Shown here: piece after piece, positions 19,811-20,734 of the stretch
How positions within the stretch are numbered: position 1 is the stretch's first letter
Layout of the letters: each line of letters begins with the position of its first letter
Origin: Gammaproteobacteria bacterium
Lineage (GTDB): Bacteria; Pseudomonadota; Gammaproteobacteria; Arenicellales; Poriferihabitantaceae
Assembly: GCA_009842505.1 (NCBI GenBank)
Contig: VYFG01000089.1
Location: forward strand, 16,800-80,799
Direction of reading: 5' to 3'
DNA length: 64,000 bases
The notes under the pieces: generated by a model
Seen by the model: the letters and a program-made list of their open reading frames with translations, nothing else
Told to the model about the DNA's origin: nothing
Databases searched by the model: none
Position numbers and translations under genes: made by a program

Positions 19811-19881
19811 TCCACGGCCTCCGTCCGGCTCCTGGCCGGACCATCCTCTCGTCAGCCGGAACCTTGCGCAGTTGATGTGCA

Positions 19882-19899
19882 ATGTTTCACGTGAAACAT
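19882..19899. promoter_or_regulatory. parS: parS centromere site (ParB binding)
   Basis: ATGTTTCACGTGAAACAT contains the perfect 16-bp consensus TGTTTCACGTGAAACA. Confidence 0.95.
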
Positions 19900-20059
19900 A
19901 TCCGGCCAGGAACCGCGTTCCGGACCGGCGTCCGCTGTCCGTAGGACCGGAAATGCGCCGCCGCCGGCCCGGGAAAGGAGCAGGGCGATTTCGGCCCGCC
20001 CATGTCATCCTGACGGAAAGGACGGAAGGAACAGAAGATCCGGACGGATCAGCCTCGGG

Positions 20060-20081
20060 AAATGTTTCACGTGAAACATTT
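20060..20081. promoter_or_regulatory. parS: parS centromere site (ParB binding), 22-bp perfect palindrome
   Basis: AAATGTTTCACGTGAAACATTT contains the perfect 16-bp consensus; start-to-start spacing 180 bp from the first copy. Confidence 0.95.
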
Positions 20082-20734
20082 CGCACCTGAACCGACGCAG
20101 CCGGGTCTTTCCCAAGCACTGTGGCCGCACGGACAAACCCGAGGCATGGGATCGTCCTGACCGTCTGCCGGCGGATGACCCGGCACGCAGTTTCCCCGAC
20201 AGGCCGCGTCTGGCCGTCATTCATGGTGACGGGGCAGGGTGAAATCTCCGTTCACCGATTGTCCGTGGATGATGATACTGCCGCAGCGTCGGGACCACGG
20301 CGCCAGGTTGGTTTGCGGGAAAGCAGCATGAAAACGCCCGGACTGGCACTGGGCAGGCTTTTCCATGCCCGAATCGGTTGCCTCCGTGGGATGGGAGATT
20401 TCCGTATGGCCGTATCGTTCGTCCGTTTGCCATTGCAACGGAGACCGAACCGACTGGCCGTCCGCGGACCGGAACCAGCAGGCTGAAGGCCGGCGATCCG
20501 GCGCCTGCAGGGGAATTTCCGCACCGTTCCGCGGGCCTTCGTGGCGGGTCTTCGCCCATGGCCGGACGAACAACTGTCCAGGATCGGCAGGATGTCCGTT
20601 CCATGACTCTAATTAATAATATAACTATATGAAATATAGATTTAAAATAAATCATGCCCTGATCGGGTTCCGGCCCGAATGCAGGCGGTTTCATGATATA
20701 ATTCAAACGCTTATACGGATCTCCCGGTTTCTGC

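What the first reader, a model, noticed from the sequence alone, without database searches (positions are those of the whole stretch)
19811..20734. Two perfect parS palindromes in a 0.9-kb noncoding dnaN-gyrB gap where recF is expected
Seen: TGTTTCACGTGAAACA occurs perfectly at 19883-19898 and 20063-20078, exactly 180 bp apart; the second is extended to a 22-bp palindrome. Known: this is the ParB/Spo0J parS consensus, and many proteobacteria have dnaA-dnaN-recF-gyrB. Here recF is missing and the gap has no credible CDS. Inference: this interval may act as an origin-proximal centromere, with two parS sites about 1.2-1.5 kb from the probable oriC.
Basis: partly seen in the sequence, partly recalled or inferred. 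Interest (0 to 1): 0.6.

Follow-up and report, generated by a model that had tools for sequence, protein, structure and literature searches.

The report
Chromosome centromere sites that outlived recF
The two short palindromes next to this bacterium's replication origin are almost certainly its only chromosome-segregation (ParB-binding) sites; in most related bacteria such a pair is hidden inside the repair gene recF, and here that gene has gone while the pair remains.

Summary
Two perfect parS 16-mers lie at 19883-19898 and 20063-20078, 180 bp apart, in a 924-bp noncoding dnaN-gyrB gap. They are the only parS sites in the 3.73-Mb draft genome (up to 2 mismatches), 1.2-1.5 kb from a DnaA-box cluster at the GC-skew minimum. 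The second palindrome is 24 bp, not 22. ParA, a ParB with parS-type recognition residues, and SMC are encoded elsewhere. recF is absent; recO and recR are present.

Across recF-bearing gammaproteobacteria, two parS sites usually lie inside the recF coding sequence, at fixed codons (LDWG-x-FHVE and MFHVE[HQ]), 612-678 bp apart. Known in P. aeruginosa (parS1/parS2); I found no class-wide report. The window's whole order, and a few neighbouring families, have lost recF, yet in 41 order loci examined (chosen for having a parS) the sites lie between dnaN and gyrB, exactly two in 37. Within the genus the gap is unalignable except for these sites and a short gyrB promoter.

Best reading: an origin-proximal ParABS centromere that outlived the gene containing it. 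Retention, rather than re-acquisition after recF loss, is inferred from parsimony; no recF remnant is detectable. Mechanistically ordinary; evolutionarily a clean natural experiment.

The parts
19811..20734 (.). dnaN-gyrB intergenic gap (924 bp), the place occupied by recF in most gammaproteobacteria
   Evidence: No Pfam match for its ORFs; RecF profile at noise level; unalignable with same-genus gaps except parS and a short gyrB-proximal block.
19882..19899 (.). parS site 1, 18-bp perfect palindrome ATGTTTCACGTGAAACAT (core 19883-19898)
   Evidence: retained in all four same-genus relatives examined.
20059..20082 (.). parS site 2, 24-bp perfect palindrome GAAATGTTTCACGTGAAACATTTC (core 20063-20078)
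   Evidence: second site present in all four same-genus relatives examined, at variable spacing.
18396..18703 (.). probable oriC: dnaA-dnaN intergenic region with four DnaA-box-like 9-mers at 18546-18671
   Evidence: 4 of the 11 boxes (up to 1 mismatch) in 64 kb lie here; cumulative GC-skew minimum at 18741.
17025..18395 (+). dnaA
   Evidence: TIGR00362, 545 bits, over cut-off.
18704..19810 (+). dnaN
   Evidence: TIGR00663, 270 bits, over cut-off.
20735..23128 (+). gyrB
   Evidence: TIGR01059, 1000 bits, over cut-off.
20601..20707 (+). AT-rich block and TATAAT-containing stretch (TGATATAATTCAAA at 20694), probable gyrB promoter
   Evidence: 22% GC in 20601-20660; the 14-mer is shared with the nearest relative at the same distance from gyrB. 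Promoter role is inferred.

Best explanation
The two palindromes are the parS centromere of the chromosomal ParABS system. ParB loads at them, spreads over the flanking DNA as a CTP-dependent clamp, is moved by ParA to separate sister origins, and probably loads SMC there. This pair corresponds to the two parS sites that recF-bearing gammaproteobacteria carry inside recF. recF was lost in the ancestor of this order and a few neighbouring families, the surrounding DNA was replaced or decayed, and the two sites were kept because the cell still needs a centromere about 1-1.5 kb from oriC. Shown here: sequence, position, number, conservation, recF absence, and presence of ParA, ParB and SMC. Inferred: ParB binding, segregation and SMC loading (from the known system), and retention as opposed to re-acquisition (from parsimony).
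For: Only two parS sites in the genome, both here. ParA and ParB present; ParB carries R173, T179, N178, G201 and R204 by the Caulobacter numbering of PMC7383237; SMC N-terminus matches TIGR02168 at 527 bits. Same-genus gaps share, at 12 bases or more, essentially only the parS sites. In 37 of 41 order loci chosen for having a parS, exactly two sites lie between dnaN and gyrB, 26-1568 bp apart. In recF-bearing relatives the pair is inside recF in 58 of 74 loci and 25 of 30 top-scoring class-wide loci, always in one frame, with CAC 63/63 and GTG 62/62 against a 48% background for each. RecF over cut-off: 223 of 274 in the class, but only 2 of 100 in the order, both on short extra contigs. RecO 97/100, RecR 96/100. 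Rooted tree: the recF-less order plus families f135, f69 and f122 form one clade, SH-aLRT 98. P. aeruginosa parS1/parS2 lie in recF (PMC5521831, PMC3909081) and any one of parS1-4 suffices for segregation (PMC4368675).
Against: No experiment on this organism. No recF remnant is detectable in any gap, so descent of these exact copies from intragenic sites is not shown. The order of branching among recF-less and recF-bearing groups is unresolved, and non-gamma outgroups with recF have no parS in it, so a pair gained outside recF is not excluded. Most order loci were chosen because they had a parS, so the retention rate is not an unbiased estimate. The genome is a draft, so a site in a gap could be missed.
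Confidence: 0.85

Rival explanations
1. The pair is a working centromere but was acquired in the dnaN-gyrB gap after recF was lost, independently of the intragenic sites. Selection for an origin-proximal position and freedom from coding constraint made this gap the easy place.
For: No recF remnant in the gap; spacing varies from 26 to 1568 bp against 612-678 bp in recF; parS insertions are favoured near recF-gyrB in Caulobacter for unknown reasons (PMC5815017).
Against: Needs two independent gains of exactly two sites in the same interval; the clade is old and the pair is nearly uniform within it; other recF-less families also have it.
Confidence: 0.2
2. The sites mainly serve as ParB-dependent regulators of gyrB or dnaN transcription, with segregation done elsewhere.
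For: The sites lie upstream of gyrB; excess ParB lowers expression of genes near parS1-4 in P. aeruginosa (PMC5521831).
Against: No other parS exists in the genome to do segregation; P. aeruginosa genes next to intragenic parS1/parS2 are unchanged in parB-null and parS-null cells (PMC5521831); distance to gyrB varies widely among relatives.
Confidence: 0.05
3. The gap is a decayed or frameshifted recF, or another unannotated gene, and the palindromes are incidental.
For: Long ORFs cross the region because the DNA is GC-rich; gap length is near that of recF.
Against: No Pfam match, RecF profile at noise level, no conserved coding sequence between same-genus genomes, and gap lengths of 94-1826 bp in the order.
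Confidence: 0.02

Closest known systems
P. aeruginosa parS1/parS2 inside recF, part of the parS1-4 cluster (PMC4368675, PMC5521831, PMC3909081)
   Same: Two near-identical palindromes between dnaN and gyrB, close to oriC, with a chromosomal ParAB.
   Different: In Pseudomonas the sites are coding sequence within an intact recF and there are ten sites in all; here they are intergenic, recF is gone, and they are the only two found.
Chromosomal ParABS of Bacillus subtilis (Spo0J) and Caulobacter
   Same: Same 16-bp parS consensus, ParB family and recognition residues; SMC present.
   Different: Number and location of sites; the dnaN-gyrB position is not where those species keep their parS clusters (from memory, apart from the Caulobacter insertion hot spot in PMC5815017).
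RecOR recombination mediators without RecF (noted by Rocha et al. 2005, PMC1193525)
   Same: RecF absent with RecO and RecR present.
   Different: Here it is order-wide and coupled to survival of parS sites normally carried by recF.

Membership tests
Chromosomal ParABS parS centromere | 16-bp palindrome matching TGTTTCACGTGAAACA | tested here: met
   Two exact copies.
Chromosomal ParABS parS centromere | Origin-proximal location | tested here: met
   About 1.2-1.5 kb from the DnaA-box cluster and GC-skew minimum; oriC itself is predicted.
Chromosomal ParABS parS centromere | Cognate ParA and ParB in the genome | tested here: met
   ParB TIGR00180 at 193 bits, over cut-off; ParA-like ATPase directly upstream.
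Chromosomal ParABS parS centromere | ParB residues for parS rather than NBS (R173, G201) | tested here: met
   GRSRAAVTNTLRLLN...GHAR gives R173, T179, N184, G201, R204; position 162 is H rather than Q.
Chromosomal ParABS parS centromere | Sites conserved beyond background | tested here: met
   parS sites are nearly the only shared words of 12 bases or more between same-genus gaps.
Chromosomal ParABS parS centromere | ParB binding and a role in origin segregation in vivo | not testable with these tools
   Needs ChIP-seq and mutants.
Intragenic recF parS pair (Pseudomonas parS1/parS2 type) | Two sites between dnaN and gyrB | tested here: met
Intragenic recF parS pair (Pseudomonas parS1/parS2 type) | Sites are codons of an intact recF | tested here: not met
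   No recF in the gap or the genome.
Intragenic recF parS pair (Pseudomonas parS1/parS2 type) | Common descent with the recF-embedded sites | tested here: inconclusive
   Same interval and number, but no alignable flanks and an unresolved branching order.

The most novel reading that the evidence does not exclude
A pair of centromere sites written in the codons of two RecF motifs (FHVE) was fixed early in gammaproteobacteria. When recF was lost in the ancestor of this order, and perhaps separately in other lineages, the gene disappeared completely but both sites stayed between dnaN and gyrB. The centromere's position is thus under selection independent of its host gene, and two sites rather than one are maintained.
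Probability: 0.65. Interest if true: 0.55.

Novelty: new member of a known kind. Interest (0 to 1): 0.42.

Why it matters
parS sites within genes raise the question of whether the DNA site or the protein motif is under selection. Here the gene is gone and both sites persist in fast-evolving noncoding DNA across an order, which points to selection on the DNA at this place and on having two copies. It also bears on the unexplained preference for parS insertions near recF-gyrB in Caulobacter (PMC5815017), and it marks an order that does recombination with RecO and RecR but no RecF. Any genome scan that masks coding sequence will miss the main centromere of many gammaproteobacteria.

Tried and rejected
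Betaproteobacterial origin (betas are recalled to lack recF): rejected by the 23S word AAACGATGTGGGAAGGC, which matches the GAM42a probe target as I recall it. recF elsewhere in the genome: the eight weak hits (best 37 bits against a cut-off of 172) cover only about 35-70 N-terminal positions and look like other ATPases; one is SMC. The two order genomes with a real recF have it on short contigs that carry a second, divergent dnaN and gyrB, so probably contamination. I first suspected that one such contig recurred in another bin because both are 3873 bp; the sequences do not match. recF remnants by profile: scores at the level of shuffles. An RNA in the gap: only a sub-threshold Rfam match (20.8 bits against 40). 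Exact 180-bp spacing as functional: spacing varies among relatives. A claim of several independent recF losses: one clade is not rejected (AU p 0.30 rooted, 0.58 unrooted). Naming the organism: the nearest named record is MAG Gammaproteobacteria bacterium Ww423; no paper found.

Full report
OBSERVATION. Both 16-mers are present and perfect at the stated coordinates. Even at up to 3 mismatches the window holds only these two, against 0.10 expected, and no shuffle gave two. In the whole draft genome (3,731,799 bases, 157 contigs) they are the only matches at up to 2 mismatches. The second palindrome runs 24 bp (20059-20082), slightly longer than reported; the first 18 bp (19882-19899) (read). 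dnaA, dnaN and gyrB are confirmed by NCBIfam. The gap has no Pfam-matching ORF, no Rfam match near threshold and no RecF signal above shuffles.

SETTING. Four of the eleven DnaA-box-like 9-mers in 64 kb fall within 18546-18671, between dnaA and dnaN, and the cumulative GC-skew minimum is at 18741. oriC is therefore probably the dnaA-dnaN gap, and the two parS lie about 1.2-1.5 kb to its right. parA and parB are adjacent on contig C36, followed by a short ORF that looks like AtpI by eye (no NCBIfam match). The ParB aligns along its core with solved ParB, Spo0J and Noc proteins. Counting from the conserved G170 of Caulobacter ParB, it has R173, N178, T179, N184, G201 and R204; R173 and G201 are reported as invariant in parS-binding ParBs (PMC7383237). 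SMC is present.

RECF. The RecF model over its cut-off is missing from this genome and from 98 of 100 order relatives. The two exceptions sit on short contigs with a second, divergent dnaN and gyrB copy, so the order as sampled probably lacks recF altogether. In the class, 223 of 274 sampled genomes have it. RecO and RecR are kept in 97 and 96 of 100 relatives. Rocha et al. already noted RecF as the least frequent of the three (PMC1193525). The 23S signature indicates a gammaproteobacterium.

WHERE THE PAIR COMES FROM. In named gammaproteobacteria with recF (Halomonas, Microbulbifer, Halopseudomonas, Cellvibrionaceae and others), the dnaN-gyrB interval also holds two parS sites, and they lie inside recF: two sites in 58 of 74 loci, one in 10, none in 6 (counted). 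In 30 top-scoring RecF loci from the class sample, 25 have two sites in recF and 3 have one (counted); this sample leans towards well-conserved RecF. The frame is constant: the first site spells part of LDWG-x-FHV(E/K), the second MFHV(E/K)(H/Q) near the C-terminus. Synonymous choice at the first site is fixed: His CAC 63 of 63 and Val GTG 62 of 62, against 48% each elsewhere in the same genes (the sequences are related, so the p-values overstate the case). P. aeruginosa parS1 and parS2 are known to lie in recF (PMC5521831; PMC3909081). A full-text search for parS with recF gave only 15 papers. None of those I read describes the class-wide pattern, but the 2007 survey of parS sites by Livny and colleagues is not in the library, so priority is not established.

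AFTER RECF LOSS. In the window's order, 41 loci with both dnaN and gyrB were measured; 37 have exactly two sites in the gap and 4 have one. Spacing ranges from 26 to 1568 bp and gap length from 94 to 1826 bp. These loci were found through a parS search, so this is a statement about position and number, not about prevalence. About 40 of 100 relatives had no match within one mismatch of TGTTTCACGTGAAACA; at least one of them (G032) has the pair as TGTTCCACGTGGAACA. Three further families outside the order (f69, f122, f135) and the long-branched f88 also lack recF and keep one or two parS between dnaN and gyrB. For f135 recF absence is inferred from its not being listed. Within the genus the gap aligns only at parS and a short gyrB-proximal block, and the exact shared words of 12 bases or more are the parS sites plus three chance-length words.

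POLARITY. In a DnaN+GyrB tree rooted with two other Pseudomonadota that have dnaN-recF-gyrB and no parS in recF, the order plus f135, f69 and f122 form one clade (98). Its position relative to the recF-bearing groups is unresolved, and a single recF-less clade including f88 is not rejected (p 0.30). No other-class genome in the phylum sample had an exact match to the recF site-1 motif, which several gammaproteobacteria had. recF therefore predates the class and was lost here. The pair arose within or at the base of the gammaproteobacteria, most simply inside recF, where all recF-bearing groups still carry it. That the window's copies descend from those is inference; re-acquisition is the main rival.

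MECHANISM. Nothing suggests a departure from standard ParABS: ParB loads at parS with CTP, spreads, and is pulled apart by ParA; SMC is probably loaded there. In P. aeruginosa one of the four origin-proximal sites is enough (PMC4368675), which makes the maintenance of two sites across this order worth testing. Caulobacter's unexplained hot spot for parS insertions at recF-gyrB (PMC5815017) suggests that the position itself is favourable.

VERDICT. The function is ordinary. The added value is that recF-embedded centromere sites have outlived their gene.

Noticed in passing
G000 and 100 order relatives: Order-wide loss of RecF with RecO and RecR retained: a RecOR-only gap-repair lineage.
   Followed up: partly
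L137 (G019) and L134 (G016), genus g3 of the same family: Both parS copies in a genome carry the same unusual substitution (TGTTTCATGTGAAACA twice in G019; TGTTTCACGGGAAACA and its reverse complement in G016), as if the two sites evolve in concert or ParB specificity has drifted.
   Followed up: no
L129:6482-8309 (G011): The two parS sites are 1568 bp apart with a 159-aa ORF of unknown identity between them.
   Followed up: no
L128 and L132 (G010, G014; genus g7): One parS remains next to dnaN although gyrB is no longer the next gene; a 701-715-aa ORF follows instead.
   Followed up: no
G033, G041, G046, G051, G055, G059 (family f11): No parS within one mismatch of TGTTTCACGTGAAACA in any sampled member of f11, including two single-contig genomes; the site may have changed or be the CC/GG form.
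   Followed up: no
L182 (G204), L183 (G177), L187 (G347): In these recF-bearing genomes two parS sites lie close together, one at or just after the recF 3' end and one shortly downstream.
   Followed up: partly
window 13907-16591: A CpxP/CpxR/CpxA-like set (all below NCBIfam cut-offs) lies directly upstream of dnaA, instead of the rpmH-rnpA genes often found there.
   Followed up: no
window 17502-17582, minus strand: Sub-threshold Rfam match to AsdA, antisense RNA of dnaA (33.5 bits against 52).
   Followed up: no
G013:C272 (L131) and G037:C361 (L259): Short contigs with a second, divergent dnaN-recF-gyrB set in genomes that already have a recF-less one: probable contamination of these assemblies.
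   Followed up: yes
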